Source: Bacteroidales bacterium
GTDB taxonomy: Bacteria; Bacteroidota; Bacteroidia; Bacteroidales; UBA932
NCBI GenBank assembly: GCA_017459075.1
Contig: JAFUDQ010000011.1
Span: 89,473 to 153,472 of the forward strand
Reading direction: 5' to 3'
Length of the DNA stretch: 64,000 nt
Numbering within the stretch: the stretch's first letter is position 1; each line of letters opens with the position of its first letter. The notes under the pieces were generated by a model. It was not told the DNA's origin and searched no databases. It saw only the letters and a program-made list of their open reading frames with translations. The translations under genes were made by a program, and so were the position numbers. Below, piece after piece: positions 1,333 through 22,481 of this stretch.

Positions 1333-1350
1333 TGTGGTATACTGTGGTAT
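1333..1350 (-). promoter_or_regulatory. Candidate GntR operator, paired TGTGGTAT repeat
   Basis: On the plus strand TGTGGTAT occurs at 1333-1340 and again at 1343-1350, so the two copies are 10 bp (one helical turn) apart. The pair sits just downstream of the -7 element at 1359-1366, over the expected start of transcription of the lipoprotein gene. It matches the repeat at 22464-22481 in 14 of 18 bases. That the regulator encoded at 1399-2424 binds it is inference. Confidence 0.6.
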
Positions 1351-1358
1351 TCGTTGGG

Positions 1359-1389
1359 CAAAGTTAAGAATTAATTCTCTATTTATCAA
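1359..1389 (-). promoter_or_regulatory. Bacteroidota-type promoter of the DUF4988 lipoprotein gene
   Basis: Reading the minus strand, TAACTTTG (1359-1366) matches the -7 consensus TAnnTTTG. A TTG (1387-1389) lies 20 nt upstream as a partial -33 element. Transcription would begin near 1351, within the paired repeat, leaving a leader of about 50 nt. Confidence 0.6.
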
Positions 1390-1398
1390 TAAACAGGG

Positions 1399-2424
1399 CT
1401 AAAAAGTATGGCGTTTATTCATACGGAAGTCACAATGAAGCTTTTCCGCCTTGTGATTCAGTATCATTTCGGCTGCAAGCTGCCCCATTTTACGGAAGTC
1501 GGCCGACACTGTGGTAAGCCCGCCCAGAATCAGTTCGCACATGTCCGATTCGTTATATGCGATTATGCGGACATCGGTACCGATTTCAAGTCCGGACTGC
1601 AATATATTGTGCCACAGGGTCACAAGGCCGGCATCCAGTTGGGAGTTAAGCACAAGGAAGGTATCGCCGCTGTTAATGTCCATAGGAGCCTCCGTCATGA
1701 ATTCTACGGGGATGCTCATGTCTGAGGAGAATCGCTCCACGCCCTTGTGGATATCGTTTCCGTACAAGGATGACGGGAGGGTTATTACCCTAAGCCTGTC
1801 TATCTTCGCCCCTTCCTTTACACCCTGCATGAGGCCGTAGTAAATATCGTTCTCAAAGTCCTGATACACAGCACCGTAGTTGCCGGGGTAGTCTGGCTGA
1901 AGGCGGTCCAGCATAATGAGCTTGCGGTTCGGGATGCGGGCAATCTGCTTAAGCGCGCGGGCCTGGGACTCACTGTCAAGCGGGAAGTGCGGAGTAATGA
2001 CGTAATAGTCAAAACGGTCAAGGTAATTGTCCAGATAATACTCCAGAAGGTCAAGATTCTGGTTATGGTTGACTATTGTTACCTCTGCGTTGTCTCCGAG
2101 GGTGCCGGCAAAGGCATTGAACAAAATCTGCTTGTAAACAGACAGTTTGTCAAAAATCACAAGAACCTGCTTGTGACTGCTTGTGTCGATGTCCGCGGCA
2201 AAGAAACCTTTGCCATGACGAGGGACGATGACGTTCCTCGACACCAGCTCTCCGTACGCTTTCTTGACAGTCTCCTTGGAAATACCAAGCTTTTCTGCCA
2301 TGGTATTAAGAGAGGGTATCTGCTCGTCAGCCTTCAGTCGGCCCTCATGAAGGGCTCTTTCCACTTGATTTACAAGTTGTTTATAAATCGGGTCCTTTGC
2401 GGCGGGGTCTACATGAAATCTCAT
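1399..2424 (-). CDS. GntR-family regulator with LacI-like sugar-sensing domain
   Basis: The protein has 341 residues. Residues 1-75 form a winged helix of the GntR type (KDPIYKQLVNQVERALHEG, then IPSLNTMAEKLGISKETVKK). The rest, from about residue 85, is a periplasmic-binding-protein-like sensor domain as in LacI regulators. This hybrid is common in Bacteroidota, where it senses a sugar or its phosphate in the cytoplasm. It starts 3 nt after the GH20 gene ends and is the last gene of the long operon beginning at 22449, so it would be made along with the system it probably controls. The paired TGTGGT repeats at 1333-1350 and 22464-22481 are its likely sites. No two-component hybrid or ECF sigma/anti-sigma pair is visible nearby, which supports this gene as the local regulator. 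The inducer is unknown. Confidence 0.88.
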   Translation of the reverse strand: MRFHVDPAAKDPIYKQLVNQVERALHEGRLKADEQIPSLNTMAEKLGISKETVKKAYGELVSRNVIVPRHGKGFFAADIDTSSHKQVLVIFDKLSVYKQILFNAFAGTLGDNAEVTIVNHNQNLDLLEYYLDNYLDRFDYYVITPHFPLDSESQARALKQIARIPNRKLIMLDRLQPDYPGNYGAVYQDFENDIYYGLMQGVKEGAKIDRLRVITLPSSLYGNDIHKGVERFSSDMSIPVEFMTEAPMDINSGDTFLVLNSQLDAGLVTLWHNILQSGLEIGTDVRIIAYNESDMCELILGGLTTVSADFRKMGQLAAEMILNHKAEKLHCDFRMNKRHTF

Positions 2425-2427
2425 AAG

Positions 2428-3939
2428 CTAAAATTCATCATCTACAGGAATCGGAGTCCCTTCCGGCGGAAAACGCTGCAAGCCGGAGCGGGCAAGGTCC
2501 GATTCGGTATCCATGTCAAAAGTATTGTATCCGAGGCTCCTGAAAACATCCAGCAAGGCCCGAGCGCGGCGGCGGAAAGCCTTGTAAGATTTGGCCCCGG
2601 AAGGAGTCCAGGCTGTTTCTGCAAGGGCAAAGAGCCTGGGATAAAGCATATATTCCGCATGCTGCGGAGTAGGGATATACTCCGTCCACAGATTCGCCTG
2701 GACGCCAAGGAGATGCTTCGGGTCCATGCCTACCGCGAGCGGCTCGTAACCATAGGTGAAACGCAGTGAAACCAGTTCCCCTACGGCTTTGGGTTCCTTA
2801 CGGATAAGGTCCTGATAGTAATTGTAATAGCAGTGGCTGTTGGGAGACATTATTACGTCATGCCCTGCCGCTGAGGCCTTGATGCCTCCGGAAACACCCC
2901 TCCAGCTTTGTACGACGGCGTTTTCCGGGACTCCGGTCTCAAGGATTTCATCCCAGCCGATAATCCTGCGGCCCTTGCCGCTTATAAAGCGCTCTATCCG
3001 CCTTACAAGATAGCCCTGCAACTGCCTGACATCGGTATAACCCTCTTCTTCCATCCTGCGGCGGCAGTTTACACACTGCGACCATGTCTTCATCGTAGCC
3101 TCATCGCCGCCGATGTGGATAAGTGGGGAAGGGAAAATGTCCATAACTTCCGCAAGGACGGCCTCCAGAAAGGTGAAGGTGGCTTCTGAACCGGGGCACA
3201 AATCCCAGGCTCCGGTGTGGCGCCGGCCGTCTTCAAGCTGGCAAAGAACCTCCGGATAACTGTAACCAACCTCCATGCTGTGGCCGGGCATCTCTACTTC
3301 CGGAATCACGGTTATAAAGCGTTCTGCGGCATATTTTACAAGCTCCCGCAACTGCTCTTTGGTGTAATATCCGCCGTAGGCAAGAGGGTCTCCTTCACTT
3401 GAAAAACGATACCCTCCCTGCTCCCATTCTGTATATGTGGTGCCGATGCGCCAGGCCGTTTTTCCGGTCAGAAGGGGAAAAGCGTCGCTCTGGATGCGCC
3501 AGCCTGCGGAATCGTCAAGATGAAGATGCAGGACGTTAAGCTTAAGCATAGCCATCGCATCCACCTGTTTCTTAAGGAAATCGAGGCCCTTGAAGCTTCG
3601 CGACTCATCTATCATAAGGCCGCGGTTGGCAAAGCGCGGGTAGTCAAAAACAGTGCAACAAGGCAGTTCACCGCCCCTTTGGAGCTGCTCCAGGCTTGTT
3701 TTAGCGCGGAACACGCCCTCTTCCGTAGCCGCTTCTATAAGAATCTTTTTCTTGCTTATTGTGAGCCGATAGGCTTCTTTTTGCTGGAATGGTTCAAGGC
3801 CGGACACATCCTTGCGGAAGGCCTTCCCGTCCATCTTCACCACCACCTTCTGGCGGACATTGACTCCCTCCCCGTCAGAATATTTGACGGGGGCGGGAAT
3901 CAATCCAACAAAAATAACTAGTGCAAGTATGAAATTCAT
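2428..3939 (-). CDS. GH20 beta-N-acetylhexosaminidase
   Basis: 503 residues with an N-terminal hydrophobic signal (MNFILALVIFVGLIPAP) and no clear lipobox, so probably periplasmic. A short GH20b-like domain precedes the barrel, which begins near residue 105 (RGLMIDESRSF, then HLHLDDSAGWRI). The catalytic pair is in HIGGDE at 275-280: Asp279 would orient the substrate acetamido group and Glu280 is the general acid, as in the family's substrate-assisted mechanism. It should release terminal GlcNAc or GalNAc. The length is near normal for a one-domain GH20 enzyme. The gene lies 7 nt after the phosphodiester glycosidase gene and 3 nt before the regulator, in the same operon. This is the most certain clue that the target glycan contains HexNAc. 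Confidence 0.93.
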   Translation of the reverse strand: MNFILALVIFVGLIPAPVKYSDGEGVNVRQKVVVKMDGKAFRKDVSGLEPFQQKEAYRLTISKKKILIEAATEEGVFRAKTSLEQLQRGGELPCCTVFDYPRFANRGLMIDESRSFKGLDFLKKQVDAMAMLKLNVLHLHLDDSAGWRIQSDAFPLLTGKTAWRIGTTYTEWEQGGYRFSSEGDPLAYGGYYTKEQLRELVKYAAERFITVIPEVEMPGHSMEVGYSYPEVLCQLEDGRRHTGAWDLCPGSEATFTFLEAVLAEVMDIFPSPLIHIGGDEATMKTWSQCVNCRRRMEEEGYTDVRQLQGYLVRRIERFISGKGRRIIGWDEILETGVPENAVVQSWRGVSGGIKASAAGHDVIMSPNSHCYYNYYQDLIRKEPKAVGELVSLRFTYGYEPLAVGMDPKHLLGVQANLWTEYIPTPQHAEYMLYPRLFALAETAWTPSGAKSYKAFRRRARALLDVFRSLGYNTFDMDTESDLARSGLQRFPPEGTPIPVDDEF

Positions 3940-3946
3940 TTAAATC

Positions 3947-5242
3947 TTATTTGCGGAAGAATCCAATGGATGTCATTACAGGACGATTGCCGCCTGTAAG
4001 GTCGTTAAGATGCTGTCCTCCGGCCCACATTCCGGTGGAGCCGCCACCATCAAGGTTAAGGGCGCCGATGCAGCCAAGGCCCTTCATGACTTTGGCCAGT
4101 TCCAGCGTATTGGCTCCCTGTGAAGCGGAAATTCTTCCGTCGCAAATAAACAGGATTACCTTTCCGTCGGAAGTATAACCTACTGCGGTGCGATCTGCAC
4201 GCTGGTCTACACCGTAAATATCGTCAGCCCAGAGCTCATAGTTTGTGAGCCAGTGTCCGGAACTGTTTTTCTTGTCATTGATGGGGCATTCGCCGTTCTT
4301 AAGAAGGACAGGGCCGCAGGTAACTGCATTGTAAGGGGCCCAGTTTGCAGGTACACAAGGATAGGTTTTGCTTCCTTCCTGTTTTACAGCCTCTCCTGCA
4401 ACTGTGGGGATGGGGTTGTCATAGACATAAATGGTTCCGTGCTCGGGCGTATATGACCAGTAGACTCCGGGAACGCCGTTATTATCTACACCAAAGAGAC
4501 CGCGGGATACAGGATGCAGCCTCTCGTAAGCAGAATTGGGAACTGCGCCCCAGTACTGCTTGTCTACAGCCCAGTTATCATCGGCAATATAACGCCAGGG
4601 AGTCTGTACACCGTCCATTACGGCAAAGCCGATAGGCGCCGTACCAAAGATTCCGCCGTTGATAAGTACAAGGCAGTTTCCGGCATCCTCGGCCTGTTTG
4701 TCGATGGTTTTGGTAGCACCTTTTCCGGGGTAGATGACCTTCAATTCAACGTCCTGGCGGCAGTCGGCAATAGCATACCAGGCATTGAAGGGACGGCCTT
4801 CAAGCTGGTCCGTTGTCTTGTAAATCTTTACGCTTGCAGGGAGGCCAAGGCCGGGCACTTCAGTCCACGTGAAGCGGATTTCATCCTCCGGAACAGGGTC
4901 CGGCAGGGTTACGGGCTCTGCGAATACTGCCTGGGAGAGTTTTTCGCCCTTACCAACAGCCTGTACTCCAAGCCTGTAAGTTGCACCCATTTCCAGATTC
5001 TCAAACAGATAAGAAGAGGTGTTTGCGGGCAGCTTGGCGTAGGGTTTCTGCTCTTTGCTTAGGAACACGTAATACCCCTGCTCTGCGGCACAGTCGCTCC
5101 AGCTAAGGGTAATGGAGGTTTCTGATGTCATCTGGGCGATAACATTTCCCGGGGCATCCAGAGCAGTCTCATTGGAGTCATCGGATGAGCAGGCCGGTAC
5201 GGCAAAAAGCGCTATCAGAAGCAGATTCAGAATATGTTTCAT
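3947..5242 (-). CDS. Fn3 + phosphodiester glycosidase (NAGPA-type) lipoprotein
   Basis: 431 residues. A lipoprotein signal ends at VPAC, followed by an Ser/Asp/Asn-rich linker. Residues about 28-112 are a fibronectin type III domain (TSETSITLSWSDCAAEQGY). The remainder is a phosphodiester glycosidase domain (Pfam NAGPA, formerly DUF2233), with LVLINGGIFG, RTAVGYTSDGKVILFICDGR and the family's C-terminal signature NLDGGGSTGMW. The animal member removes GlcNAc from a GlcNAc-1-phospho-6-mannose diester; bacterial members act on sugar phosphodiesters, though few have known substrates. Membrane anchoring next to SusC/SusD and GH20 suggests it uncaps or splits a phosphodiester in the imported glycan. 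It is 3 nt from the upstream gene. Domain call firm, substrate unknown. Confidence 0.87.
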   Translation of the reverse strand: MKHILNLLLIALFAVPACSSDDSNETALDAPGNVIAQMTSETSITLSWSDCAAEQGYYVFLSKEQKPYAKLPANTSSYLFENLEMGATYRLGVQAVGKGEKLSQAVFAEPVTLPDPVPEDEIRFTWTEVPGLGLPASVKIYKTTDQLEGRPFNAWYAIADCRQDVELKVIYPGKGATKTIDKQAEDAGNCLVLINGGIFGTAPIGFAVMDGVQTPWRYIADDNWAVDKQYWGAVPNSAYERLHPVSRGLFGVDNNGVPGVYWSYTPEHGTIYVYDNPIPTVAGEAVKQEGSKTYPCVPANWAPYNAVTCGPVLLKNGECPINDKKNSSGHWLTNYELWADDIYGVDQRADRTAVGYTSDGKVILFICDGRISASQGANTLELAKVMKGLGCIGALNLDGGGSTGMWAGGQHLNDLTGGNRPVMTSIGFFRK

Positions 5243-5245
5243 AAC

Positions 5246-8200
5246 TTATTGTTTTTCAAATATTATCACGGCAAGGCCGTTCTGGCCAAGTTTAACCGAT
5301 GTGCCCTTTACAGAGGCATCGCCAACCGTACGCGTGTCGCGGGCCACGTAACCATCGGCCTTGATAACACCTTTTTCACGGCCTTCACCGGTATTGGTGA
5401 CGACGACGGCCATACGGTTTCCGGAGGTGTAGCTGCGGGCTACAAGGTTCGCATTGTCGCAGGTGAAGCCGTCAATTGCGGTGTACCGTCCTTCCAGAAG
5501 AAGCTCAGGGAAATCGTGGCGGATAGCATTGATTTGTGCCAGATATGCCTGATACACAGGTGTTTCGTCAATGAGCCCGCGGCAGCGGAACACTTCAATA
5601 TCGTTCCGCAGTCCCTTGAGAAGGGTGTTGTTTACGCGGCGGGGAACATCGTTGTCATCACGCACGCAGCGGTCGCTCCACACAACCTCTGGGAAGGTGT
5701 AACGGAACCACTCCGGGAAGCTCTCCGGCAGGGCGGTGAATTCGACAATATGCACGAAATCGCAGAACTGGCTGGTGCAGTCGCTAAGCCACTCTGTTCC
5801 AAGGGCGAATTCCGGGTTGCGGGCCTTTATATGGTCGCGGATTTCCTTAAGGGCATCGGCCTTATATCGTCCCGTGAAGATATCCTGAACGGGATATTCA
5901 CGCGAGAGGTCCCAGTTGGGGAACTCTTCCGCCACGCCAAGCTGGTCGTAAAAGACGGCATCGGCCCCGCAGGACATGGCCCTGTCTGCCCATGAAATAA
6001 GTTTATCCCTCCAGAGGCGCTTGGACATATCGGCAATAACGAAGGTGCGGGAGTCATAGTAGCCAAGGGTTGTGCCCTCTCCGGTGAATTTGTAATGCTC
6101 TGTGAATTCCCTTCCCGTGTTGTCTTTGTTTGCCACCTGCGATCCGCCGCCATTGCGGTAAAAGTCGCTTTCCACATCAATCAGACGTCCGTTGAAGTAA
6201 AGGAGCAGGCGGCCTCCGCCATCGCGGAAAGCCTTGATTTCCTCTTTCCAGGCAGCATCTCCGCCCTGGCTGTCATCGGGGGAATAGTTAGGATAACCGT
6301 TGTCCATGCCCTCTTTCCACCAGCCGAAGGCCAGCACAGCATTGCAGCCGACGGATTTACCTACGTCAGCTATGCGGCCGGGAAGGTCTTTGTAGCTGCG
6401 GAGGTACTCTCCGTACTGATGCTTGAAGATAATCCTCTGCCAGCCGGTCATATTCTGCACCCAGGACGGCACAGCGGCGTGTTTCCACCACGTATCAGCC
6501 CAGCGGCGGTAGATGCGGGAGGTTGCAGTCCAGTCTCCCTTGTAAGGAACCACGACGCTGGCGTCATTGTTCCAGGAGTCGCCGCACATGGCGTTGGGAT
6601 AGCGGTAGAAGCCGGCTTCCAACTCTGTAAAGTCACTTGTAGTGTGGCCGATTCCTTCCTTTGGATAGGTACGAAGGCCGTGCCAGGTCTGCTGGAGGGA
6701 GCTGTCGTGCGACCCAAAGTAAAGGCCATCACCCTCCCCTACGAAGGCGAAGCAGTTTGAGGCCGCGTTACGCGGATACTGAAGGTCATACTGGCGGAAC
6801 TTCTGCGCCGGAGTCATGTAAAGCGGGCGCACGTCCACATTGGAAATTTTGTAAACCGGATTGTCAAAAATCTGCCCTCCGGTGTGTGTAGTGAGCAATT
6901 TATAGCCTTCCGGCAGCTGCAAATGCCCAATGAGCGGATATTGCAGTTCCCTGATTATTGTATGCGGCTCATCGTTCTTTACCGATGCCCCGAAGCGGAC
7001 GACGGTGCCTTCGGTCCAAACCTTAAGATGAAGGGCAAAGGCCTTTCCGCCAATCCTGTCATAGTCAAGGAAGGTGGTGTCGCCCACTGTCCTTACGGAC
7101 GGGGTTTCATTCAAGGCCGATATTTCTATTTCCTTCTGCCCCGGAGTATTGTAGTAGAGCCTCCAGAGCGGGGCGCCCCCGGCATAGTTGCGTCCGTCAA
7201 AGGCAAGTTTGGAAAGTTTTCCGTCCTTCTCTATAACCACCTCTGTTACAGGCAGTTCACCCTTGTTTCCAAGCACGAATCGGCAAAGGTCGTCATAAAG
7301 GGCCCTGTCCTGCGGAAGGGTGGAAGAAGCCAGCTGGGTAAGGGCGTTTGAACCGGAATACAGGGCGATGGTCTTGTTCCCGTAGAAGCCTGCATCCTTG
7401 AACTCCTGCATATAATGGCGCAGGCGGTCCTGCAGCACAGGCACATCTTCAGGAGTATAGACAAGGCGGCCTTCCCCGTTGGGGCCAAGCACACCCTCGG
7501 TCATTTCCGCAGCCACGGCGGAATATTCAAATTCAAGCTCCATTCCGCTCATACCGGTCTCACGGATGGCAGCGATTGTCTTTTCAAAAGGATGCTGGTC
7601 TGCTTGCTTATAATCCCAGTACCAATTAGGTTGCATCCAGACCTGGTCGAAGCCAAGTTCCTTCCAGTGCTTGTAACCGGATGCCAGGTGATAAGGAATC
7701 CAATACAGGCCCTGGCCTTTCTGGTGGCAGTAGGCCGATATTGCCGGGATTATGGTCTCCCAGTTCTTGTACTGCGTGTTCCAGCCGTTGTCAACGGGCA
7801 GTTCCAGGCCCTCTGAAGTGGTATAGAAACCGCCCAGGGAGAGGTATTTGCAGCCAAGGGCGGCAAAACGGGAGCGGACCTCGTCAATATACCAGTAATA
7901 TGCCTTAAGGCGGTCTTCTATCCTGGCAAAATCAAGGCCGTCACCCCAATAGGTGGTAGAGGAAGATTTGTCTGCGAAGTGCTCCAGCATAATAGCGTCA
8001 GGAACACCTATCACCACCCATCTTTTGCTTGGCGGGTCTCCAATGCGGGCGGCCGCCTGCGCGCAGGCCTTTTCCAAATTTGCGACACTGCCTTCCGGGC
8101 CAAGCCAGAGGTCAAGCTGATATTCCCACACGCTCTTGTCCGCCGATATTCCTTCGGGAGACACTACAAGGGTTTTATTGTCTTTCCAGTCGCTGCCCTC

Positions 8201-14021: not shown

Positions 14022-17000
14022 CTAAAAATTCAGGTTGATACCCAGGCTGACGTTCTTGGTGAGCGGGTATACGTTTCCGTAGGATGATTCAAGCTCCGGA
14101 TCCCACAGCTTGAATTTTGAGAAGGTAAGCAGGTTGACGCCCTGCACATAGATACGCATTGTAGAGATACCTGCCTTCTTGGTCCATTTCTTGGGCAGGG
14201 TGTAACCCAGCTCGGCATTCTTCAGGCGGAGGAAGCTCATGTCCTTCTGCCAGAAGGTAGAGGTAACCTGGTTGTTTACAGGAGTCTCTACGGAGAAACG
14301 GGGATACTCAGCATTGGGGTCGTGTGTAACGGACCAGCTCTTCTTGGCAACATCGGCAAAAATCTGTCCCTGGATGAGGACGTTGGTTGCCGCACCACCG
14401 TAAAGGTTGTAGCCGCCGATGAAACGGGTTACGTGGCTCATTCCGCTGAAGAAGACACTTGCGTCGATGCCCTTCCAGCCCACGCTGAGGCCGAAACCGT
14501 AGTTGATTTCAGGGATGGTTGTGTAGCCGATAGGCACTTTATCGAAGTCGTTGACTATACCGTCGCCGTTGACATCGCGGTACTTGATATCACCGGGCTG
14601 AAGGGTGTAGCCGTACTGGCTGGGCCATGAGTCAATCTCATCCTGGGTCATGAAGATACCCTCTGCAATAAGACCGCGCTGCTGGTTGTTGGCGTAGCCG
14701 GCGGTATTCTGGTAAGGCCAAACCTGTGAAGGCTTGTCGTCATAAATCCTGCGGTTGCGGTTGAAGGTGAAGTTACCCCTTGCGCTGATATAGAAATCGT
14801 CGCTGAAGTTATGGTCTACCTGTGCGGAAACATCGAAACCGTGGTTCTTCATCTTACCGATGTTGATGTACTGGGTCTTCCTGAGACCCACTGCATCCGG
14901 CAGGGATTCGCGGGGCAGGAAGATTCCTGAACGAACGTCGTTGAAGTAGTCAATCTGCAATTTCACCTGGTCGCGGAAAAGGTTGACCTCAATACCTACG
15001 TTGCGTTTGAGGGCCTCTTCCCAAACGATGTCGGGATTGCCGATTTCACCGGTAGCCACACCTGCAACATAGGAAGAGCGGTTCTCTCCCCAGCTGAAGC
15101 CGGAGATTCCGGTGATGTCCATGGTAGTATTGTAACCGAATCGTCTTGAACCACCGATCTGGTCGTTACCTACCTTTCCGATGGAGCCTTTAATCTTGAA
15201 CAGGCTTACAACAGGCTTGAGCGGCTCCCAGAAGTCCTCGTTGGAAACGAGATAACCGAGGGCGGCTGAAGGGAAGAATCCGAAGCGGTGTCCCGGAGAG
15301 AAGTTCTCTGAGCCGTTGTAACCGAAGTTGAACTCTGCGAAGTAGCGGTCCTTGAAGCTGTAAGTTGCACGTCCTGCAATACCAAGGCTCTTGCGCGGGA
15401 AGGTCTCCCAGTAGTCATAGCCGGGGTGGGTGTTGTTGCGGTCACGCAAATAGTAAAGGAACATTCCGCTTACGCGGTGTGCGCTTCCGAAGGTGCGCTC
15501 ATACAGGGCCGATGCCTCAAGGTTGAGCACGGTGTATCCGCTCTGGGCAGAGCTTGATACGTTGATGTAACCTGCGGTATTGTTCTGTGCCTGATATACA
15601 TAGTCCTGTGCATCCGGGTCCCACTTGAGATAGTAAACGCGGGGCAGGATTCCGTTGGTGATGGAAGAAGCCGTACGGGCGTCCCATGATACCTGAACCT
15701 TTGCCGTAAGGCCTTCTGTAATGATTTCAGAGAAGTCCTGTGTAAGGGCGACGGTTGTCTGGGCGTTCTGGGTGTTGACGGTAGCATAACCCATGTTGTT
15801 AATCATGTTGTAAGGGTTGGAACCTGTCTCCGGGTTGGAGAGGGTGCCGTCGCTGAACACCTTAGGGAAGCCGATAGGGGTAATCTGCATCACATAATTG
15901 TAGATGTTGGAGAGGGAGGTACCAGGCTGGTTCTTCTTGGTGAACTGTGTGGAAATATCCATACCCAATGTGGTTGAAGGGGTAATGTTGATATCCACGT
16001 TAGTACGGAAGTTGAACTTGCGGTAGTTCATCTGGGAGTTGTAACGGTCGTTGTCATCGACATTGAAAATACCGTCCTCGAAATAGTATGAACCGCCCAC
16101 ATAGTACCTGATGTTCTTGGTACCGCCGGTAACGTTTACGTTAACCTTGGAAGTGCGGGCCCTGTCCTTGAAAATCTCGTGAATCCAGTCTACGTTAGGA
16201 TAGAGGTCAGGGTTTGCTCCTGAAAGGTACATCTGACGGCTGTAATCGTCGATGGTTCCGGGCTGCATGGCGTTGAGGTAGTCTATAAACTGCTCTGCAG
16301 TAGCCATTTCCGGAAGCCTGGTAGGAGAAGTTACACCTGTTTCCAGTTTGACGTTAACCTTAGGCTTGGACTCTGAACCGCGGCGTGTTGTGATGAGAAC
16401 GATACCATTTGCACCACGCACACCGTAAAGGGCGGTAGCGGTAGCATCCTTAAGGATGGAGAAAGAAGCGATATCTTCTGTATCTACAAGGTCCATGGAC
16501 CTTTCAACACCGTCCACAAGAATAAGAGGGTAAGAGTTTGCACCAAAGGTATTTACACCGCGGATCCAGAACTCGGCGCTAGAACCAGGCTCACCGCTGT
16601 GCTGTACTGCTACAACACCGGCGAGTTTACCGGCGAGGCCAGTTGAAAGCTGGCCAACGGGGGCCTGAAGCTGGCTGGCATCAACCGTTGTGATTGAACC
16701 GATTACGGAAGCCTTCTTCTGTGCACCATAGGCCACTTTTACGACTTCTTCCAGCACATTTGCCAGAGGTTCAAGCTTAACGGTAAAATCTGTCTGGTTG
16801 CCTACGGTAATCTGCTGGTCAGTATATCCGAGGAAGCTTACGATAAGGACATCGGTGGGCTTGACGGTAATTTCAAACCGTCCCTCACCGTCGGTCATCG
16901 CGCCACGGGTTTCACCCTTGACGGTTACAGAAGCACCCGGCAGGGGCAAATTCGTCTCGTCCACAACCGTACCGGTCACCCTTTGGCCCTGTGCATGGGC

Positions 17001-17075
17001 GGCCGGGGAGAAGGCCAGTAACAGACAGGCGAAAACTGCCGTAAGCAGAATGCTGACTTGTTTTTTCATACTCAA
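14022..17075 (-). CDS. susC: SusC/RagA TonB-dependent outer-membrane transporter
   Basis: 1017 residues. After the signal peptide (ending near AHAQG) comes a carboxypeptidase-D-regulatory-like domain (VTGTVVDETNLPLPGASV, about 30-105), a short TonB-box-like stretch, and the plug with the SusC signature ILKDATATALYGVRGANG at about 210-230. The remainder is the beta barrel, ending in SLGINLNF with the terminal aromatic residue expected for an outer-membrane barrel. With SusD it imports oligosaccharide using energy from TonB-ExbBD. No STN domain precedes the N-terminal regulatory domain, so signalling through an anti-sigma factor is unlikely, in keeping with GntR control. It is 18 nt downstream of the ROK kinase gene with no promoter seen between them. 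Confidence 0.96.
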   Translation of the reverse strand: MSMKKQVSILLTAVFACLLLAFSPAAHAQGQRVTGTVVDETNLPLPGASVTVKGETRGAMTDGEGRFEITVKPTDVLIVSFLGYTDQQITVGNQTDFTVKLEPLANVLEEVVKVAYGAQKKASVIGSITTVDASQLQAPVGQLSTGLAGKLAGVVAVQHSGEPGSSAEFWIRGVNTFGANSYPLILVDGVERSMDLVDTEDIASFSILKDATATALYGVRGANGIVLITTRRGSESKPKVNVKLETGVTSPTRLPEMATAEQFIDYLNAMQPGTIDDYSRQMYLSGANPDLYPNVDWIHEIFKDRARTSKVNVNVTGGTKNIRYYVGGSYYFEDGIFNVDDNDRYNSQMNYRKFNFRTNVDINITPSTTLGMDISTQFTKKNQPGTSLSNIYNYVMQITPIGFPKVFSDGTLSNPETGSNPYNMINNMGYATVNTQNAQTTVALTQDFSEIITEGLTAKVQVSWDARTASSITNGILPRVYYLKWDPDAQDYVYQAQNNTAGYINVSSSAQSGYTVLNLEASALYERTFGSAHRVSGMFLYYLRDRNNTHPGYDYWETFPRKSLGIAGRATYSFKDRYFAEFNFGYNGSENFSPGHRFGFFPSAALGYLVSNEDFWEPLKPVVSLFKIKGSIGKVGNDQIGGSRRFGYNTTMDITGISGFSWGENRSSYVAGVATGEIGNPDIVWEEALKRNVGIEVNLFRDQVKLQIDYFNDVRSGIFLPRESLPDAVGLRKTQYINIGKMKNHGFDVSAQVDHNFSDDFYISARGNFTFNRNRRIYDDKPSQVWPYQNTAGYANNQQRGLIAEGIFMTQDEIDSWPSQYGYTLQPGDIKYRDVNGDGIVNDFDKVPIGYTTIPEINYGFGLSVGWKGIDASVFFSGMSHVTRFIGGYNLYGGAATNVLIQGQIFADVAKKSWSVTHDPNAEYPRFSVETPVNNQVTSTFWQKDMSFLRLKNAELGYTLPKKWTKKAGISTMRIYVQGVNLLTFSKFKLWDPELESSYGNVYPLTKNVSLGINLNF

Positions 17076-17093
17076 TAAATATTAGTGATAATT

Positions 17094-17894
17094 CTAATCA
17101 TTTTCAAACAATGAAGAAAGACCCTTGAATACGGCGCCTTCCGGGGCTCGTTCTACCCTAAGCCTGTCAAGATGGTTTTTCAGGGGACTCCGCATTAGGC
17201 TGAGGGACTTGGAAATCTGTCCGCCTACAAGCAGGATGTCCGCCCCTATTTCCTCCAGGACCCCGGCCAGAGCCTTGCCTAAGGTGTCTCCAAGATTGTC
17301 GTACACCTCAATGGCGGCAGTCTCTCCGGCATAAGCCCTCATGGCAATGGAATAAGCGCTCTGGTTCTTCTCTCCGGTCTTTTCTTCATAAGCAGCCCGG
17401 ATTCCGCGCGCAGATACCTTGTCCTCAAGGATGCCGCCTTCATAAGGCAGGTTCCAGAGGCTTCTGGCGGGGGAACCGGTTTCGCTCATCTGAATCTCTC
17501 CTTTAATGGAATAAGAGAAGCCAAGACCTGTTCCGATGGTGGCCAGGGCAACATTTTTGTCCTGCAACCCAAGGGTACAAATAGAACCAAGGAGAAGGGC
17601 GTTCACATCGTGGATGAACTTCAGCTCCACATTGTCCGGTACCCCGGCAAGGGCCCTGAAGCTTTCCCCTTTGACCGCTGCGAACTTGTGCTCCATGCGG
17701 AATATACCCTCCTTGTAGTCGAACGGCCCTGGAATGGCGATGCCTATTTTGGAGACACCATCACCGGAGACAGCCTTTCGCAAGGCTGCGGCAATCTCTT
17801 CACGGCTGCCGTCGGACCTTATAGGAATCTGGCTGCCGTCGGAGACTTTTATGAAAGTGCCACCAATGTCAAGCAGGGTCATTCTGGTATCCAT
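17094..17894 (-). CDS. ROK-family sugar kinase
   Basis: 266 residues. The ATP-binding motif LLDIGGTFIKVSDG is at the N-terminus, the catalytic-Asp segment is FIHDVNALLLG, and the second phosphate motif is TIGTGLGFSY. The protein is shorter than most ROK kinases (about 290-320) and lacks the usual CxCGxxGC zinc motif, so it belongs to a divergent branch. It probably phosphorylates the sugar released from the imported glycan. Two starts are possible: Met1 at 17894 overlaps the upstream gene by 26 nt, and Met5 (MTLLDIGG, 17882) overlaps by 14 nt; the shorter form brings the motif closer to the terminus as is typical. Lying between the transporter and isomerase genes suggests one cytoplasmic pathway. 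Confidence 0.82.
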   Translation of the reverse strand: MDTRMTLLDIGGTFIKVSDGSQIPIRSDGSREEIAAALRKAVSGDGVSKIGIAIPGPFDYKEGIFRMEHKFAAVKGESFRALAGVPDNVELKFIHDVNALLLGSICTLGLQDKNVALATIGTGLGFSYSIKGEIQMSETGSPARSLWNLPYEGGILEDKVSARGIRAAYEEKTGEKNQSAYSIAMRAYAGETAAIEVYDNLGDTLGKALAGVLEEIGADILLVGGQISKSLSLMRSPLKNHLDRLRVERAPEGAVFKGLSSLFEND

Positions 17895-19740
17895 CTCTCA
17901 AGCAGGTTTTATGTACTCTGATAGGTTCTTTTCCAAGATTTTCAATAATATATTCACCCATGGAAGCCGGTACGCAGGCTATCTCCATGAAGTCAAGGTC
18001 AAAGTAACGCTCCGGGTTAGCGGCGCTCCTGATTCTGATGCGGTCACCATCGACAAGGGTAAGGACATGGAATTTCTCTCCCTTTGTATCCTGACGGCAG
18101 CACTTCTCAAACTCAAGGCGGCGGAGGGAGATGTACATCTGCGGATTCTCTCCGAGGATGTATTCTTCCCAGCCTTCACCCTTGTCTGCAAGACGGGGCT
18201 GCTGGACGATGTATTCAGGGCTCTGGGGGTCATGGATTACCGAAGTCCTCCTGTCCTGACGCACATTCTCTTCTCCAAGCTTTGTGTGGATGGGGCGCTG
18301 CTTGCCGTCGAAGTCAAGTCGAAGATAATCATACATTTTATATGTATATGAGCCGATGGTCAGGGAGCCAATCTCCAGGATAACCTGGTTGCGGCCGCTG
18401 GAGTGGATGGTTCCGGCGGGAAGCATCACCTGAAGGCCAGGCTTTGACTCTTCGTAGCTGACGTATTTCATATAGTCGCAGGGAACGTGGTCCGTATCAG
18501 CAGCCTCAATCTCCCTGAAGAAGGCGGGGATGTCGGCATCGTCCCTGAAGCCGATGAATGTCTTGGCCTCATGTCCGGTAATAACAACGTAATAACTCTC
18601 ATCCTGACGGCCAAGCTCGTTGTAATTCTCAATATTGAATTTACCGCCTGAATGGCACTGGATGGACATGTTGCCGGTTGAATGGTAGCTGTCGTCCCAG
18701 TTGAAGCGGATGGGGAAATAGCCCTTGTATTTGGCTACGCAGGTCTCTCCCATAAGGTTGATGCCCTCTTTGTGAACGAAGGAGCAGTAGTTGATATCCA
18801 GTTTTTCCTGACCGGCCTCAACAAGAACGCTCACCTCCATGGGGATGAAGTCGAACACCCAGGCGGCGTTACGCATCTTCTCCGGCAGGCCGCGGAGCTT
18901 TTTCATATAGCTTCCGCCCCATACACCCTCAAGATAGCAGGGCTTTGCACGGAAAGGATATTTGACCAGCTGGGCGCAGACATCGGCAAAAGAAGCGAAA
19001 GGCATCATCTGGATGTTGGCCCTGTCGTTGTCAAGGAAATACCAGTCAATCGCAGAATTTGCGAAAAGCTCCTTGCGCAGGCATACGGCGTTCTCAAAAT
19101 CGCAATAGTAGCAGCGCCTTATTGTACGGTTGATGATTCCGGGATGCTTCTTTCCAAGATTTGAATACTCTCCCGCGCGTATGCGCAGCATGGAATTCAT
19201 AGGGGTAAGGTCAAAGAAGCATTTTACGTCATAAAGGTCACGAAGGCTCTTTGTAAGGCAGCCGTAACCATATACTGCAACTATTTTTCCGGGAGCCTTG
19301 GCGGCGGCAACGCTGGAGCGGAAAGCCTCAACCTTGGCGACGTCAAGAAGGCCCTCATAGCCTCCGTAGTAAACTTTTCCGTATAGCAGGGTCGGGTCAA
19401 TTTTCTTGTCCCAGATAAGCAGAGGGTCGATGATGGCATCTATTTCCTCTCCGGACTTAAGGGTGGCCTTATTGCAGTCAACAGCCTCAAAGTCAAGGCC
19501 AAGAAGATCGCATTCGCGGCCGATGAGGCCGACCATTACCTTCCAGTCTGCACCCGTATAGCCGTCAAATGCTACGACAACTCCCTCTTCGCGTGCCTTC
19601 CCTGCAAGAATTGCAGTGAATTTCTTGGCAACGTTAGGGGTACCTCCGGCTACTATTGAAGAAATAGTTTCCTCTGAAAGCTGGGGACGGTTTACCGGCT
19701 TGGGGTCATGGAAGGGATAAGGATTGTACATGAAACTCAT
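17869..19740 (-). CDS. Cupin sugar-phosphate isomerase-like protein with extra N-terminal domain
   Basis: 623 residues. The C-terminal half (about 320-620) resembles class I mannose-6-phosphate isomerase cupins: GNMSIQCHSGGKF and GRQDESYYVV supply candidate metal ligands (Gln, His, Glu), and LPAGTIHSSGRNQVILEIG resembles the family's third motif with the last His. The first 310 residues are a separate alpha/beta region that I cannot identify; VAVYGYGCLTKSLRDLYDV recalls a degenerate nucleotide-binding loop, which may mean an ancestral kinase-like domain. A role in isomerising a phosphorylated hexose made by the neighbouring ROK kinase fits the order of genes. No signal peptide. Cupin call fairly sure, exact reaction unknown. 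Confidence 0.68.
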   Translation of the reverse strand: MSFMYNPYPFHDPKPVNRPQLSEETISSIVAGGTPNVAKKFTAILAGKAREEGVVVAFDGYTGADWKVMVGLIGRECDLLGLDFEAVDCNKATLKSGEEIDAIIDPLLIWDKKIDPTLLYGKVYYGGYEGLLDVAKVEAFRSSVAAAKAPGKIVAVYGYGCLTKSLRDLYDVKCFFDLTPMNSMLRIRAGEYSNLGKKHPGIINRTIRRCYYCDFENAVCLRKELFANSAIDWYFLDNDRANIQMMPFASFADVCAQLVKYPFRAKPCYLEGVWGGSYMKKLRGLPEKMRNAAWVFDFIPMEVSVLVEAGQEKLDINYCSFVHKEGINLMGETCVAKYKGYFPIRFNWDDSYHSTGNMSIQCHSGGKFNIENYNELGRQDESYYVVITGHEAKTFIGFRDDADIPAFFREIEAADTDHVPCDYMKYVSYEESKPGLQVMLPAGTIHSSGRNQVILEIGSLTIGSYTYKMYDYLRLDFDGKQRPIHTKLGEENVRQDRRTSVIHDPQSPEYIVQQPRLADKGEGWEEYILGENPQMYISLRRLEFEKCCRQDTKGEKFHVLTLVDGDRIRIRSAANPERYFDLDFMEIACVPASMGEYIIENLGKEPIRVHKTCLRDGYQNDPA

Positions 19741-19751
19741 AGCGCGACCTC

Positions 19752-21215
19752 CTATCTTATATCGTGATATTCAAAGCCCATGATTTCTGCCAGAGCCTCA
19801 AGCTGGGGACGGTAGTCACCGTCTACGATGGCATAATGCTGGGTTACTCCAACCTTGAGCACACGCTCAAACAGTTCCTTTACAGGCAGAACCGGTTTGA
19901 AAATGGTGTGGCTGTATGTTGCCAGCAGGTGCTTGATTTTGCTCTGGGGGGTATCCTTGGCGTCAAGGCTTTCTGCCATGAAGGTAACCAGCTTGTACTT
20001 GCCGTTCTCTTCATAAAGGCCGGCCACAGTCTTCATGCCGGGGCTGATGCGGTACCATGCGAAAGGCGCACCTGCGTACTTCCAGGAGGTTTTTGCAAAG
20101 CGTACGTCGCGGGAAATGATGACATTGTCCTGCCATGCAGGGTCGTTATGGTCATTGGGGCCTGCGTGACCGCCTGCGAAGGTGCCGAAGTCATCCTCAA
20201 TATGGAAAGGCTCAATGAAATTGACATTCTTGCCGCTGAGGAGCTTGAGGATATAGGTAATGAGGCCTGCGCCGATGTCTGCTTCCGGAACAAGGACGCT
20301 CACATTCTCATTGAACCACTGCGGATAGAAGCCTGCGCGGCAGCCTGCGGTGCGGAAGGTGGCCTGGTCGATATCGTTGTAAACATAGCAGTCGATATCA
20401 TTCTTCTGGGCCATTTTCTTTATGGCGAGGGTGGCCTTTACGCAGCCGATGAATTTGTCATACTCAACATCGTCCATCATCTTGTACTTGGACGTAAGCT
20501 CATCGGCATAGGCTTTTACCTCTTCATCGGTCAGGTTGTCGATTTCAGTGCCGTAGTCACTGTAAGGGAGGTAATGGATTTCGGGGCCGATTTTGGTGAA
20601 GAGGTCGTAATTGTCGATGTAAGTGCTCCACATGGCCTCGTTCATATTGGCCATGAGGCCGACGTTGGAACGGCGGAGGATGGCGCGGGTGCGGGCAGCA
20701 TCGGCATAAATACGAACCTTCTCTGTCACCTCTTCCCTTGTTCCAAGGACGATGCGTACGTTCTCACGGGGAATCCTTCTTACGCTGCCGGAGCCCTCAA
20801 GGGAGCCAACGAGTGTGCCTGCGCACAGGTAGTCTACAAAATCATCCTCGTCAAGAGTGGTTTCAAAGGTCATGCGCGGCTTTGCAACATTTGCAAAGAT
20901 GATGGGCACTGCGGGGCAGTCGCGAAGGAAGCGTATCCAGGCGAAGTCCTCGCTCCATGAAAGGAATTCGGCATAAACGAAGTCTACCTTCTGGGCATAG
21001 AAGAGGTCCATGGCCCTTGCGGCGTCTTCCCTTTCATAGACAATTCCCGGGTCTACAAGATCCAGGAAGTCCATAGTTGCCTTGATTTCGGCTACAGCCT
21101 TGTCTTTGCGCTCTCCGTATGTACCGCGAGCGGGGCCGTAAAGATTCTTGAACCTGGGGGACGCTATGAGTAGCAGTCCGGCCTTAGGTTTGCGTATTTT
21201 TTCAGCAGCTTTCAT
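19752..21215 (-). CDS. L-fucose/L-arabinose isomerase-superfamily protein
   Basis: 487 residues, cytoplasmic. The overall layout fits the L-fucose/L-arabinose isomerase-like fold: an alpha/beta N-terminal part with a substrate-binding-protein look (DFVYAEFLSWSEDFAWIRFL), a middle domain (VGLMANMNEAMWSTYIDNYD), and a C-terminal part with acidic and His residues (FNENVSVLVPEADIGAG, HIEDDFGTFAGGHAGPNDHN). These could form the Mn site that interconverts an aldose and a ketose, but I cannot assign the ligands with certainty. It lies in a set with a transporter, a kinase and a cupin isomerase-like protein, which argues for metabolism of a released monosaccharide. It overlaps the MFS gene by 14 nt. 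Confidence 0.65.
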   Translation of the reverse strand: MKAAEKIRKPKAGLLLIASPRFKNLYGPARGTYGERKDKAVAEIKATMDFLDLVDPGIVYEREDAARAMDLFYAQKVDFVYAEFLSWSEDFAWIRFLRDCPAVPIIFANVAKPRMTFETTLDEDDFVDYLCAGTLVGSLEGSGSVRRIPRENVRIVLGTREEVTEKVRIYADAARTRAILRRSNVGLMANMNEAMWSTYIDNYDLFTKIGPEIHYLPYSDYGTEIDNLTDEEVKAYADELTSKYKMMDDVEYDKFIGCVKATLAIKKMAQKNDIDCYVYNDIDQATFRTAGCRAGFYPQWFNENVSVLVPEADIGAGLITYILKLLSGKNVNFIEPFHIEDDFGTFAGGHAGPNDHNDPAWQDNVIISRDVRFAKTSWKYAGAPFAWYRISPGMKTVAGLYEENGKYKLVTFMAESLDAKDTPQSKIKHLLATYSHTIFKPVLPVKELFERVLKVGVTQHYAIVDGDYRPQLEALAEIMGFEYHDIR

Positions 21216-22449
21216 TATTGTAAAGTTTAGAATAATCTTTGTTATAGTGCTTGTAGCTTACCCACAGGCAGCAGAGCCCGCAGACCAGCCAGATAACTCC
21301 AAGTATGGGGAAGGTGGCGTTCAGGCTGCCGGTCGCGTCCTTGATGAGGGCGAGCACGTAAGGGGCGGTTGCACCCACGGCGAAGCCCGTCATAATCATA
21401 GCGCTGGAGCAGCTGGCATGAAGATGCGGCGGGGTAACATCGTACAGGGCCGCATAAATGTTGGCATCGAAGAAGGCACGGAAGAAACCCCAGCCTGCGA
21501 AGCAGAGGTAGAGTACCCAAACGGTGCTTGCAGTTCCCATGAAAGGCAGGAAGGCCGCGCCAAGGATAAGGCCTGCGCCCTGGATCACCATGCGCTTACG
21601 GGGGTCTTTGTCGGCCCATTTGTCAGAAAGGGTACCGGCCAGGAGCACACCTATAAAGGCGGCCACATAGGTCCAGAGCATGGAATTGAGCCCGGCCTGG
21701 GCACCGCTCTGGCCGAAGTTCTCCTGAAGGAAGGTGGGAACCCAGGTCATGTATCCTGTAATCACGAAGATGAATCCGCAGAAGCCGATTGTAACCATAA
21801 GGGCGGTAGGAGTTGTGAATACCGTCTTGAAACCGGTCATTATGCTTACCTTCTTTACGTTTTGCGTGGCTTCTTCATTGGTGGCGTCCTTAAGCCTTAT
21901 TGCCATAACAACAGCCCAGATTACGCCTGCACCGCCGAAGATATAGAATGCATACTGCCAGCCTAGCTTGTCCCCGATGTATCCGGCGAGCCATCCGGCC
22001 AGAATCACACCTACATAATATGCAGTCTGGTGAATGGACATGGCCCTTGCGCGGGTTTCCTTATGATACTGCCCCAGCAAAGAGTAGTTCGCCGGCCCGA
22101 AGAAGGCCTCTCCACCTCCTGTTGCCACGGAGCGCGTGACTATAAGCAGGAAGACGCCGTTGGCGATACCGGTGAGCATGGTTGCAAGGCTCCAGAAGAG
22201 GATGCTACCCGTTATAACCCACTTGCGGCTGAATTTGTCTCCCATCCATCCGCCAATAGGCACCATGCATGCATAGAAGAGATTGAAGAAGACCGCGATA
22301 AGGCTTACCGATGTGTCTGTAAGATTGAGACTGTCCCTTATGAGAGGCAGCACGGAGTTGAAGACCTGACGGTCTCCCTGGTTAAGGAGATATGCTACCC
22401 AGAGCAGCAAAAGTACCTCCCATTTATACCACTTGTTTACTTTTCCCAT
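21202..22449 (-). CDS. MFS transporter, ACS/hexuronate-like
   Basis: 415 residues with about 12 predicted membrane helices. The N-terminus (YLLNQGDRQVFNSVLPLI) and the motif-A loop (GGWMGDKFSRKW) match the anion:cation symporter branch of the major facilitator superfamily, whose members carry hexuronates, gluconate-type acids or small sugars across the inner membrane. It is the first gene of the long minus-strand operon, so it would move the products of periplasmic digestion to the cytoplasmic isomerases and kinase. A strong promoter with a candidate operator lies directly upstream (22464-22512). Confidence 0.88.
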   Translation of the reverse strand: MGKVNKWYKWEVLLLLWVAYLLNQGDRQVFNSVLPLIRDSLNLTDTSVSLIAVFFNLFYACMVPIGGWMGDKFSRKWVITGSILFWSLATMLTGIANGVFLLIVTRSVATGGGEAFFGPANYSLLGQYHKETRARAMSIHQTAYYVGVILAGWLAGYIGDKLGWQYAFYIFGGAGVIWAVVMAIRLKDATNEEATQNVKKVSIMTGFKTVFTTPTALMVTIGFCGFIFVITGYMTWVPTFLQENFGQSGAQAGLNSMLWTYVAAFIGVLLAGTLSDKWADKDPRKRMVIQGAGLILGAAFLPFMGTASTVWVLYLCFAGWGFFRAFFDANIYAALYDVTPPHLHASCSSAMIMTGFAVGATAPYVLALIKDATGSLNATFPILGVIWLVCGLCCLWVSYKHYNKDYSKLYNNESC

Positions 22450-22463
22450 AATTTTTAACTTAT

Positions 22464-22481
22464 CTGTGGTGTGCTGTGGTG
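22464..22481 (-). promoter_or_regulatory. Candidate GntR operator of the PUL operon
   Basis: TGTGGT occurs at 22465-22470 and 22475-22480, again 10 bp apart, preceded in both copies by C. It ends 1 nt before the -7 element at 22482-22489 and covers the expected start of transcription, a position suited to repression. It resembles the pair at 1333-1350 (14 of 18 bases). Confidence 0.6.

What the first reader, a model, noticed from the sequence alone, without database searches (positions are those of the whole stretch)
1333..22481. Paired TGTGGT operator links two promoters to a distal GntR regulator
TGTGGTAT-AC-TGTGGTAT (1333-1350) and TGTGGTGT-GC-TGTGGTGC (22464-22481) share 14 of 18 bases, the same 10-bp spacing and the same orientation to the genes they precede. 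Both cover the expected start of transcription just downstream of a Bacteroidota -7 element, and both flank the operon whose last gene is a GntR/LacI hybrid. I found no third copy in the other intergenic regions. This gives a concrete regulon: 12 operon genes plus the collagen-like lipoprotein, perhaps also the divergent GH3-GH127 unit, with the regulator made from the operon it controls.
Basis: partly seen in the sequence, partly recalled or inferred. Interest (0 to 1): 0.72.

Follow-up and report, generated by a model that had tools for sequence, protein, structure and literature searches.

The report
Tandem repeat switch for sugar genes
Two matching DNA tags mark the start of a 12-gene sugar-scavenging operon and of a neighbouring surface-protein gene; the same tags accompany the same regulator in dozens of related bacteria, so they are very probably the landing sites of the repressor that the operon itself encodes.

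Summary
Confirmed and extended. Of 50 genomes with a regulator homologue, 39 carry the motif (66 places); the reversed control pattern is in none. In 13 contigs two copies lie 17.7-23.5 kb apart, as here. The site follows a -7 box TAnnTTTG in one orientation, mostly by 1 nt (chiefly MFS-headed operons) or 8-12 nt (chiefly the collagen-like lipoprotein), and sometimes precedes the regulator gene. Best reading: operator of the operon's own GntR/LacI-hybrid repressor, laid over the transcription start. Binding, repression and inducer are inferred. The operator is not the usual GntR palindrome but a 10-bp direct repeat. Across 25 regulator clusters (<60% identity) an exact 7-mer repeat at offset 10 occurs upstream in 7, against 0-1 for each other offset from 6 to 30; 12 clusters drawn afterwards gave 5. 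The letters differ between clades. A tandem 10-bp operator may thus be a habit of Bacteroidota GntR/LacI hybrids. New variant of a known kind.

The parts
1332..1350 (-). Operator 1: two copies of STGTGGTRY at 10-bp spacing (coding strand RYACCACAS-Y-RYACCACAS), in front of the collagen-like lipoprotein gene
   Evidence: flanking letters
1359..1366 (-). -7 box TAACTTTG of the lipoprotein promoter; a TTG (CAA at 1387-1389) lies 20 nt further upstream (possible -33)
   Evidence: read; offset 10 nt; promoter consensus from PMC7366714 (passages)
1..1298 (-). Lipoprotein with DUF4988, collagen-like repeat and BACON domain (cut by the window end); homologues stand behind the same motif in relatives
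1399..2424 (-). GntR/LacI-hybrid regulator, last gene of the operon: winged helix-turn-helix plus LacI-like core; proposed owner of the operators
2428..3939 (-). GH20 hexosaminidase-like gene
3947..5242 (-). NAGPA-like phosphodiester glycosidase with fn3 domain
5246..8419 (-). DUF4855 + DUF6259 protein
8416..9966 (-). DUF4855 protein
9966..11972 (-). BT_3987-like_N protein
11994..14018 (-). SusD-like protein
14022..17075 (-). SusC-like TonB-dependent transporter
17094..17894 (-). ROK-family sugar kinase
17869..19740 (-). 623-aa protein, weak match to mannose-6-phosphate isomerase (residues 265-486)
   Evidence: E 1.7e-4; no Pfam match
19752..21215 (-). 487-aa protein, weak matches to sulfoquinovose, arabinose and fucose isomerases
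   Evidence: E 2e-4 to 4e-3, all below curated cut-offs
21202..22449 (-). MFS transporter, first gene of the operon
22464..22482 (-). Operator 2, in front of the 12-gene operon; its upstream end abuts the -7 box
22482..22489 (-). -7 box TACTTTTG of the operon promoter; TTTG (CAAA at 22509-22512) 19 nt further upstream (possible -33)
   Evidence: read; offset 1 nt
22550..27653 (+). Divergent unit: a gene without family match (called epimerase-like by guess), GH3, GH127; own -7 box TACCTTTG at 22523-22530 (read); control by operator 2 unproven

Best explanation
The two sites are operators of the GntR/LacI-hybrid regulator encoded at 1399-2424. Each is a head-to-tail pair of the box STGTGGTRY, one helical turn (10 bp) apart, laid over the expected start of transcription just downstream of the -7 element. 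Without the sugar, the repressor binds both boxes on one face of the DNA and blocks the polymerase at the 12-gene operon (importer, SusCD, glycosidases, sugar kinase, regulator) and at the lipoprotein gene. A sugar or intermediate released from the glycan binds the LacI-like core, the repressor lets go, and all parts are made together; because the regulator is the operon's last gene, its level rises with induction and shuts the system again when the sugar is gone. Shown: the sites, their uniqueness, conservation, promoter position and co-occurrence with the regulator. Inferred: binding, repression, inducer, feedback.
For: Only two exact copies in the genome, both at this locus. 39 of 50 genomes with a homologue carry the motif, 66 places, control pattern 0 of 50 (3 of the 53 near loci were left out of that call). 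In the window's family 4 of 7 regulator-positive against 4 of 192 regulator-negative genomes. An open dyad count in the intergenic DNA of 53 near loci put TGTGG-N5-TGTGG first, 31 loci against 0.05 expected from base composition. Of 67 sites 59 have a -7 box within 25 nt in the ACCACA direction only, 2 in the other only, 1 in both, 5 in neither; 59 of 6700 random nearby positions have one. The same targets recur: of 69 sites 23 precede MFS genes, 17 the collagen-like lipoprotein, 6 SusC, 6 BT3987-like, 2 the regulator itself, 2 ROK, 1 GH3, 1 the 487-aa gene, 8 unassigned genes, 3 no gene found. The protein has the wHTH and a LacI-like core. A distant clade of the regulator has other letters at the same 10-bp period: CTRTMCTGTACTRTMC (a pattern drawn from these loci) within 1 mismatch at 17 noncoding hits, two pairs of them overlapping, in 13 of 27 far loci and 0 of 53 near loci; it also differs at two helix/wing positions (E to mostly D; H/Q to mostly R/K) that by my alignment correspond to base-contacting positions listed in PMC4494728.
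Against: 11 of 50 homologue-bearing genomes lack the exact pattern; one of them has the variant TGTGGTACACTGTGGT (L015) and four have a 1-mismatch site (L040, L046, L056, L064). Of 18 site-poor loci rescanned for up to 3 mismatches next to a -7 box, 15 gave nothing; for five of these 15 (L034, L037, L042, L044, L050) the genome has the motif elsewhere, but L053, L054, L055 and L057, whose recognition helix is nearly the same, have none in locus or genome. 4 of 192 regulator-negative genomes hold the motif. No binding, expression or effector data exist. Most GntR regulators bind palindromes (PMC4494728, passages), so a direct repeat is unusual for the family. Assignment to this protein rests on linkage and co-occurrence; I did not search the relatives' loci for other shared regulators; loci from related species are not independent.
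Confidence: 0.86

Rival explanations
1. The repeat acts in the RNA: as the first bases of the leader it binds a small RNA or an RNA-binding protein that sets stability or translation.
For: Orientation relative to the transcript is nearly fixed and the site lies at the very start of the expected transcript.
Against: In 34 of 69 sites the first box starts 1 nt after TAnnTTTG; with that element centred 7 nt before the start (PMC7366714, passages) the first box would be cut by the start site and could not be wholly in the RNA. In two loci of the distant clade whose sequence I read (L082, L084) the like-built repeat lies upstream of or across the -7 box, so it would not be transcribed (sequences). 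Linkage to a DNA-binding regulator would be unexplained.
Confidence: 0.05
2. The sites belong to another regulator (SusR-like, HTCS or other, encoded elsewhere) that controls this locus together with the GntR/LacI hybrid.
For: Direct repeats are typical of SusR-like and HTCS regulators in Bacteroides (PMC3878776, passages). Relatives' loci were not searched for other shared regulators.
Against: Those repeats are 67/77 bp or on average 21 bp apart, here 10. The motif tracks the GntR/LacI hybrid between genomes and lies beside it in loci whose other genes differ; several paralogues of the hybrid have their own 10-bp repeats beside them.
Confidence: 0.06
3. The hybrid regulator binds here but as an activator, or as activator at one promoter and repressor at the other; the two offsets (1 nt and 8-12 nt after the -7 box) would mark two modes.
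For: Offsets fall in two groups that mostly follow gene class: of 34 sites at 1 nt, 21 precede MFS, 4 SusC, 2 the regulator, 2 ROK, 1 the 487-aa gene, 4 unassigned; of 23 at 8-12 nt, 15 precede the lipoprotein, 5 BT3987-like, 2 unassigned, 1 MFS.
Against: Both positions overlap the expected start of transcription, which normally means hindrance; E. coli NanR, a GntR repressor, sits on direct repeats downstream of the polymerase site (PMC8012715, passages).
Confidence: 0.05

Closest known systems
AraR subfamily of the GntR family (GntR wHTH fused to a GalR/LacI-type core), type Bacillus subtilis AraR
   Same: Domain order and fold: GntR helix-turn-helix and Peripla_BP_3, LacI-fold core in the model, AraR DNA-binding domain among the PDB sequence matches; sits in a sugar operon.
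   Different: Operator is a 10-bp direct repeat and not a GT...AC palindrome; the 80 homologues kept (best 80 of 325) are Bacteroidota at 32-70% identity; no arabinose link shown.
E. coli NanR on (GGTATA)3
   Same: GntR repressor on direct repeats placed downstream of the polymerase site (PMC8012715, passages); box close to TGGTAT (PMC4494728).
   Different: NanR belongs to the FadR subfamily, has three boxes and cooperates through a special N-terminal extension; no LacI core (recalled).
GabR and other MocR regulators
   Same: GntR wHTH on direct repeats; the GabR box ATACCA occurs twice inside site 1 read on the minus strand.
   Different: MocR proteins carry an aminotransferase-like domain; none here.
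AusR, GntR repressor of alginate use in Zobellia galactanivorans
   Same: Bacteroidota GntR repressor of a polysaccharide system, one to three operator copies per promoter (passages of PMC7874173, PMC8286568).
   Different: Original paper not held, so domain make-up and operator letters were not compared; no alginate gene was seen in the neighbours that I scanned at Zobellia homologues.
FucR (BT1272) and ManR (BT2103), GntR regulators of Bacteroides
   Same: GntR regulators of sugar loci in Bacteroidales with predicted motifs (passages of PMC3878776).
   Different: Their logos are in a figure and a supplement that I could not see, so whether they are 10-bp direct repeats is unknown to me.
SusR-like and HTCS regulators of Bacteroides
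   Same: Direct repeats at polysaccharide loci.
   Different: Repeat distance 67/77 or about 21 bp; different protein families.

Membership tests
AraR-type GntR/LacI hybrid regulators | N-terminal GntR winged helix-turn-helix | tested here: met
   PF00392 at residues 14-75, E 2.4e-12; helices 13-26, 39-46, 50-62 and wing strands in the model, mean pLDDT 88.7
AraR-type GntR/LacI hybrid regulators | C-terminal GalR/LacI-type ligand domain | tested here: met
   PF13377, E 6.5e-8; best fold matches are LacI-family repressors and ribose-binding proteins
AraR-type GntR/LacI hybrid regulators | Palindromic operator with GT...AC core | tested here: not met
   The top spaced pair in an open count is the direct repeat TGTGG-N5-TGTGG; by eye only the central GTAC is palindromic; exact 7-mer inverted repeats upstream of 25 regulator clusters reach at most 3 of 25 at any spacing 0-24
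AraR-type GntR/LacI hybrid regulators | Release from DNA on binding a sugar | not testable with these tools
   needs protein
Repressor operator overlapping the transcription start | Site at a fixed place next to the promoter | tested here: met
   59 of 67 sites with a -7 box within 25 nt in one orientation only; starts themselves not mapped
MocR/GabR family | Aminotransferase-like C-terminal domain | tested here: not met
SusR-like / HTCS operator | Direct repeats 67/77 bp or about 21 bp apart | tested here: not met
   period is 10 bp; literature distances
AusR | Orthology to Z. galactanivorans AusR and the same operator letters | not tested
   AusR paper not held and its sequence not at hand

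The most novel reading that the evidence does not exclude
Bacteroidota GntR/LacI-hybrid regulators as a family read tandem 10-bp direct repeats instead of palindromes: the geometry (one helical turn, head to tail) is kept over regulators that share only about 26-35% identity with the window's, while the box letters are swapped from clade to clade along with the recognition helix and wing. That would give a code by which operators, and hence regulons, of many uncharacterised sugar loci can be read from sequence alone.
Probability: 0.6. Interest if true: 0.65.

Novelty: new variant of a known kind. Interest (0 to 1): 0.52.

Why it matters
GntR regulators are usually searched for with palindromes, which would miss these sites. 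The site defines a regulon (operon plus a surface lipoprotein gene beyond it) that gene order alone would not show. If the tandem 10-bp rule holds, regulons of many GntR/LacI hybrids can be predicted directly, and how a LacI-type dimer binds a head-to-tail repeat becomes a testable structural question.

Tried and rejected
Chance: the window count alone is weak (5 of 100 shuffles), but the cross-genome counts exclude it. Palindrome: inverted repeats upstream of 25 regulator clusters show no single preferred spacing. A de novo Gibbs search upstream of the far regulators returned what looks like coding and low-complexity DNA and was dropped. A GCCAT-N4-CCATC dyad that ranked first in the far loci has 11 hits, 10 of them in one conserved sequence context, which in L076 is the aldolase/dehydrogenase gene. 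A 15-bp period that stood out in the far loci (10 hits) is mostly unrelated sequences. I first took the far regulators for alginate regulators; the neighbours scanned are rhamnose-type genes (L076: aldolase-dehydrogenase, FGGY kinase; L084: RhaT; L188: aldolase); the other far loci were not scanned. Zobellia loci scanned in the hope of AusR (L194, L195, L188) gave no alginate gene among the proteins scanned. A 2-mismatch site in the own genome (C48:47722, L163) is intergenic but within chance expectation. In-register similarity of the boxes of different clades (CT....GTA) is only modest: 28% of random 10-mers reach 6 of 10 or more in the best rotation. The sugar could not be named: the 487-aa gene has only weak isomerase matches and was not modelled; it was found in 3 of 295 genomes of the order, own included.

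Pattern slips: searches used TGTGKT... where TGTKGT... was meant; others (50 genomes; 199 genomes) used the right letter. One search was not repeated, so its 2 of 27 far genomes (control 2 of 27) stands for the slipped pattern; one search gave 6 of 199 (control 2 of 199). The Fisher value that sets 39/50 against 2/27 mixes the two patterns and is not used. My note after ascribes L190 to Zobellia; it is from another Flavobacteriaceae genome (G218).
Full report
Observation. They share 14 of 18 bases. Both are read by the genes that follow on the minus strand as ACCACA-N4-ACCACA, and each stands just downstream of a -7 element: TAACTTTG at 1359-1366 (10 nt before the box) and TACTTTTG at 22482-22489 (1 nt before). 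The operon between them runs over 12 minus-strand genes, 22449 to 1399, with gaps of at most 21 nt. Pfam names from first to last gene: MFS, two without match, ROK, SusC, SusD, BT_3987-like, DUF4855, DUF4855+DUF6259, NAGPA, GH20, GntR + Peripla_BP_3. The gene behind site 1 is a lipoprotein (lipobox by eye) with DUF4988, collagen-like repeat and BACON domains.

Is it chance? In the window alone the count is only mildly unusual (5 of 100 shuffles reach it). In the 2.32 Mb genome the 13-base pattern has two exact copies, both here; two 1-mismatch hits against one for the reversed control lie inside open frames. At 3 mismatches the count (24) is near the control (18).

Relatives. The best 80 of 325 homologues of the regulator were fetched from named genomes: L012-L064 (45-70% identity, nearly all Bacteroidales, many from rumen) and L065-L091 (32-38%, mostly Flavobacteria and Chitinophagales). 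The motif TGTGGT-N4-TGTGGT, up to 1 mismatch, is in most loci of the first group and in one of the 27 of the second. In whole genomes, 39 of 50 of the first group hold TGTKGTRTRSTGTGGT, 66 places, and the reversed control is absent from all 50. Three of the 53 near loci were left out of that call (L027, L039, L059). 18 genomes have one copy, 15 two and 6 three; in 13 contigs two copies are 17.7-23.5 kb apart, like the 21.1 kb here. In 199 genomes of the window's own family the slightly wider pattern TGTKGTRYRSTGTGGT is in 4 of the 7 with the regulator (E <= 1e-40) and in 4 of 192 without it; control in 3 of 199 (Fisher p 4e-5, or 5e-4 without the window's genome). One of those, G107, again has two copies 18.9 kb apart.

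Where it sits. Of 69 distinct sites (pattern ACCACASYAYACMACA, loci held at that time), 59 have an exact TAnnTTTG within 45 nt upstream. The distance from its last G is 1 nt in 34, 8-12 nt in 23 and 16-17 nt in 2. Counting both directions, 59 of 67 sites have the -7 box within 25 nt only in the ACCACA direction, 2 only in the other, 1 in both, 5 in neither; 59 of 6700 random nearby positions have one (70 sites by then, of which the three from genomes without a close regulator, L092, L093 and L097, were dropped before this count; one search found no -7 box at those three). First genes behind the 69 sites, by best BLAST match to window proteins: MFS 23, collagen-like lipoprotein 17, SusC 6, BT3987-like 6, regulator 2, ROK 2, GH3 1, 487-aa gene 1, unassigned 8, no gene found 3. 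Of the 34 sites at 1 nt, 21 precede MFS, 4 SusC, 2 the regulator, 2 ROK, 1 the 487-aa gene, 4 are unassigned; of the 23 at 8-12 nt, 15 precede the lipoprotein, 5 BT3987-like genes, 1 MFS, 2 are unassigned. Among 63 sites with a -7 box, letters that the search pattern did not fix extend the repeat: R before box 1 in 63, then Y in 61, and S after box 2 in 63, giving RYACCACAS-Y-RYACCACAS; the ACCACA boxes themselves were demanded by the pattern. Related species are not independent, and some rows are near-identical strains (for example L010 and L059, L018 and L019).

Who binds. The regulator is a GntR helix-turn-helix fused to a LacI-like core: Pfam, PDB sequence matches to AraR and YvoA at the N-terminus and LacI at the C-terminus, a confident model (mean pLDDT 88.7) whose best PDB fold matches are LacI-family repressors. 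In relatives the site also stands in front of the regulator gene itself (L030, L062) or in the divergent region between it and a SusC-like gene (for example L058-L061). I did not search the relatives' loci for other regulators that they might share.

Misses. 11 of 50 genomes lack the exact pattern. Among them L015 has the variant TGTGGTACACTGTGGT, and L040, L046, L056 and L064 have 1-mismatch sites. L021 and L049 show none next to a -7 box, and L053, L054, L055 and L057, whose recognition helix is nearly the same, show none even with 3 mismatches next to a -7 box in the DNA held. L006 and L011 from the family sample also show none there.

A wider rule. The far regulators whose neighbours I scanned (L076, L084, L188) lie among rhamnose-type genes. 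Far upstream DNA has CTATCCTGTACTATCC, again a 10-bp direct repeat: CTRTMCTGTACTRTMC, drawn from these loci, with up to 1 mismatch gives 17 noncoding hits (two pairs overlap) in 13 of 27 far loci, 0 in 53 near loci, reversed control 0 noncoding. Five more distant paralogues (27-30% identity) were found in two Zobellia genomes and one other Flavobacteriaceae genome; four of the five (L189, L190, L191, L193; not L192) have another exact 10-bp repeat in their locus. To test this, 27 further homologues (L196-L222) came from a draw of 158 genomes of the phylum, of which 19 had a match, the window's own included. Together 123 regulators fall into 25 clusters below 60% identity. In the 400 nt upstream, an exact 7-mer repeated at offset 10 is found in 7 of 25 clusters (at least 30% of members); every other offset from 6 to 30 gives 0 or 1. 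If one member is enough, 10 of 25 against 0-4. In the 12 clusters that hold only newly drawn homologues: 5 of 12 at offset 10, 0-1 elsewhere. A looser test (9-mer, 1 mismatch) is less clean: 8 of 25 at offset 10 but 4 at offset 8 and 0-2 elsewhere (new clusters 6, 3 and 0-2). Of 200 shuffles none reached 7, the largest being 4. Coding and downstream stretches show no peak at 10, and inverted repeats show no single preferred spacing. Caveats: 15 of 25 clusters show no such repeat in any member by the strict test, the near clade's own sites are mostly elsewhere than upstream of the regulator (3 sites in 2 of 48 members), and the shuffle kept base composition only. The boxes differ by clade (for example CCATCATGTACCATCATG, TACCAGTACCTACCAGT, GTCTAGTCTGGTCTAGTC, AACAGAACGGAACAGAACGG). 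Between the window clade and the far clade the recognition helix changes from [RK]-E-T to R-D-T: E in 49 of 54 near regulators (5 not read by my pattern), D in 23 of 27 far ones by the pattern; of the other four, three have V there and one differs further on. The wing changes from H/Q-G-K-G to mostly R/K-G-K-G. By my alignment these are positions 39 and 58 of the domain, base-contacting in FadR and AraR by Table 1 of PMC4494728 (section read).

Mechanism. Most likely a repressor laid over the transcription start. Each promoter is blocked by the protein on two boxes one helical turn apart; sugar binding in the LacI-like core releases it. E. coli NanR is a worked example of a GntR repressor on direct repeats downstream of the polymerase site, where a dimer sits asymmetrically and one repeat alone is bound poorly (passages of PMC8012715). 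Whether here one dimer spans both boxes or each box holds a dimer is open. The inducer is not known: the operon's MFS, ROK kinase, isomerase-like genes and GH20 fit import and breakdown of a released monosaccharide, perhaps an amino sugar, but the isomerase matches are weak.

Literature. Direct repeats are recorded for a minority of GntR regulators: FarR, NagQ (TGGTATT), NanR (TGGTATAW), GabR (ATACCA) (PMC4494728, passages); [quoted passage not shown] DeoR-family rhamnose regulators have 10-11-bp direct repeats (PMC3870299, passages), whose main text does not contain the word GntR. My paper searches turned up no report, in listings and the passages that I read, of this operator or of a 10-bp direct-repeat rule for Bacteroidota GntR/LacI hybrids; they cover open-licence papers only. 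The AusR paper and the FucR/ManR logos were not available, so part of the rule could already be in print. Novelty: a new variant of a known kind.

Noticed in passing
L163 1501-1516 (own genome C48:47722-47737): A 2-mismatch copy of the operator in an intergenic region, one base after TTTTGC, about 100 nt before a gene that I read as lysS and 190 nt before a divergent gene that I read as SusC-like (both by eye); within chance expectation but oddly placed.
   Followed up: partly
L190 1417, L189 1167, L191 1181, L193 2604; upstream of the regulators in L201, L203, L212, L214, L217, L221: Exact 10-bp-period direct repeats with clade-specific letters next to other GntR/LacI-hybrid regulators; candidate operators for regulons that I did not trace.
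   Followed up: partly
L076 9840, L084 9687 and other loci of L065-L091: Rhamnose-type loci with a GntR/LacI-hybrid regulator and candidate operator CTATCCTGTACTATCC; the held rhamnose-regulon survey (PMC3870299) does not contain the word GntR.
   Followed up: partly
window 1-1298 and L012 1658-4477: DUF4988 lipoprotein with collagen-like Gly-X-Y repeats that shares the operator with the polysaccharide locus in many species; role unknown.
   Followed up: no
window 17869-19740 and 19752-21215: Two conserved operon genes without Pfam match at the usual cut-off; the 487-aa one was found in 3 of 295 genomes of the order (own included) and looks faintly like sugar isomerases.
   Followed up: partly
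L030 9788-9873: Two operators facing opposite ways, 70 bp apart, between the divergent MFS operon and the regulator gene: suggests autoregulation in that species.
   Followed up: yes
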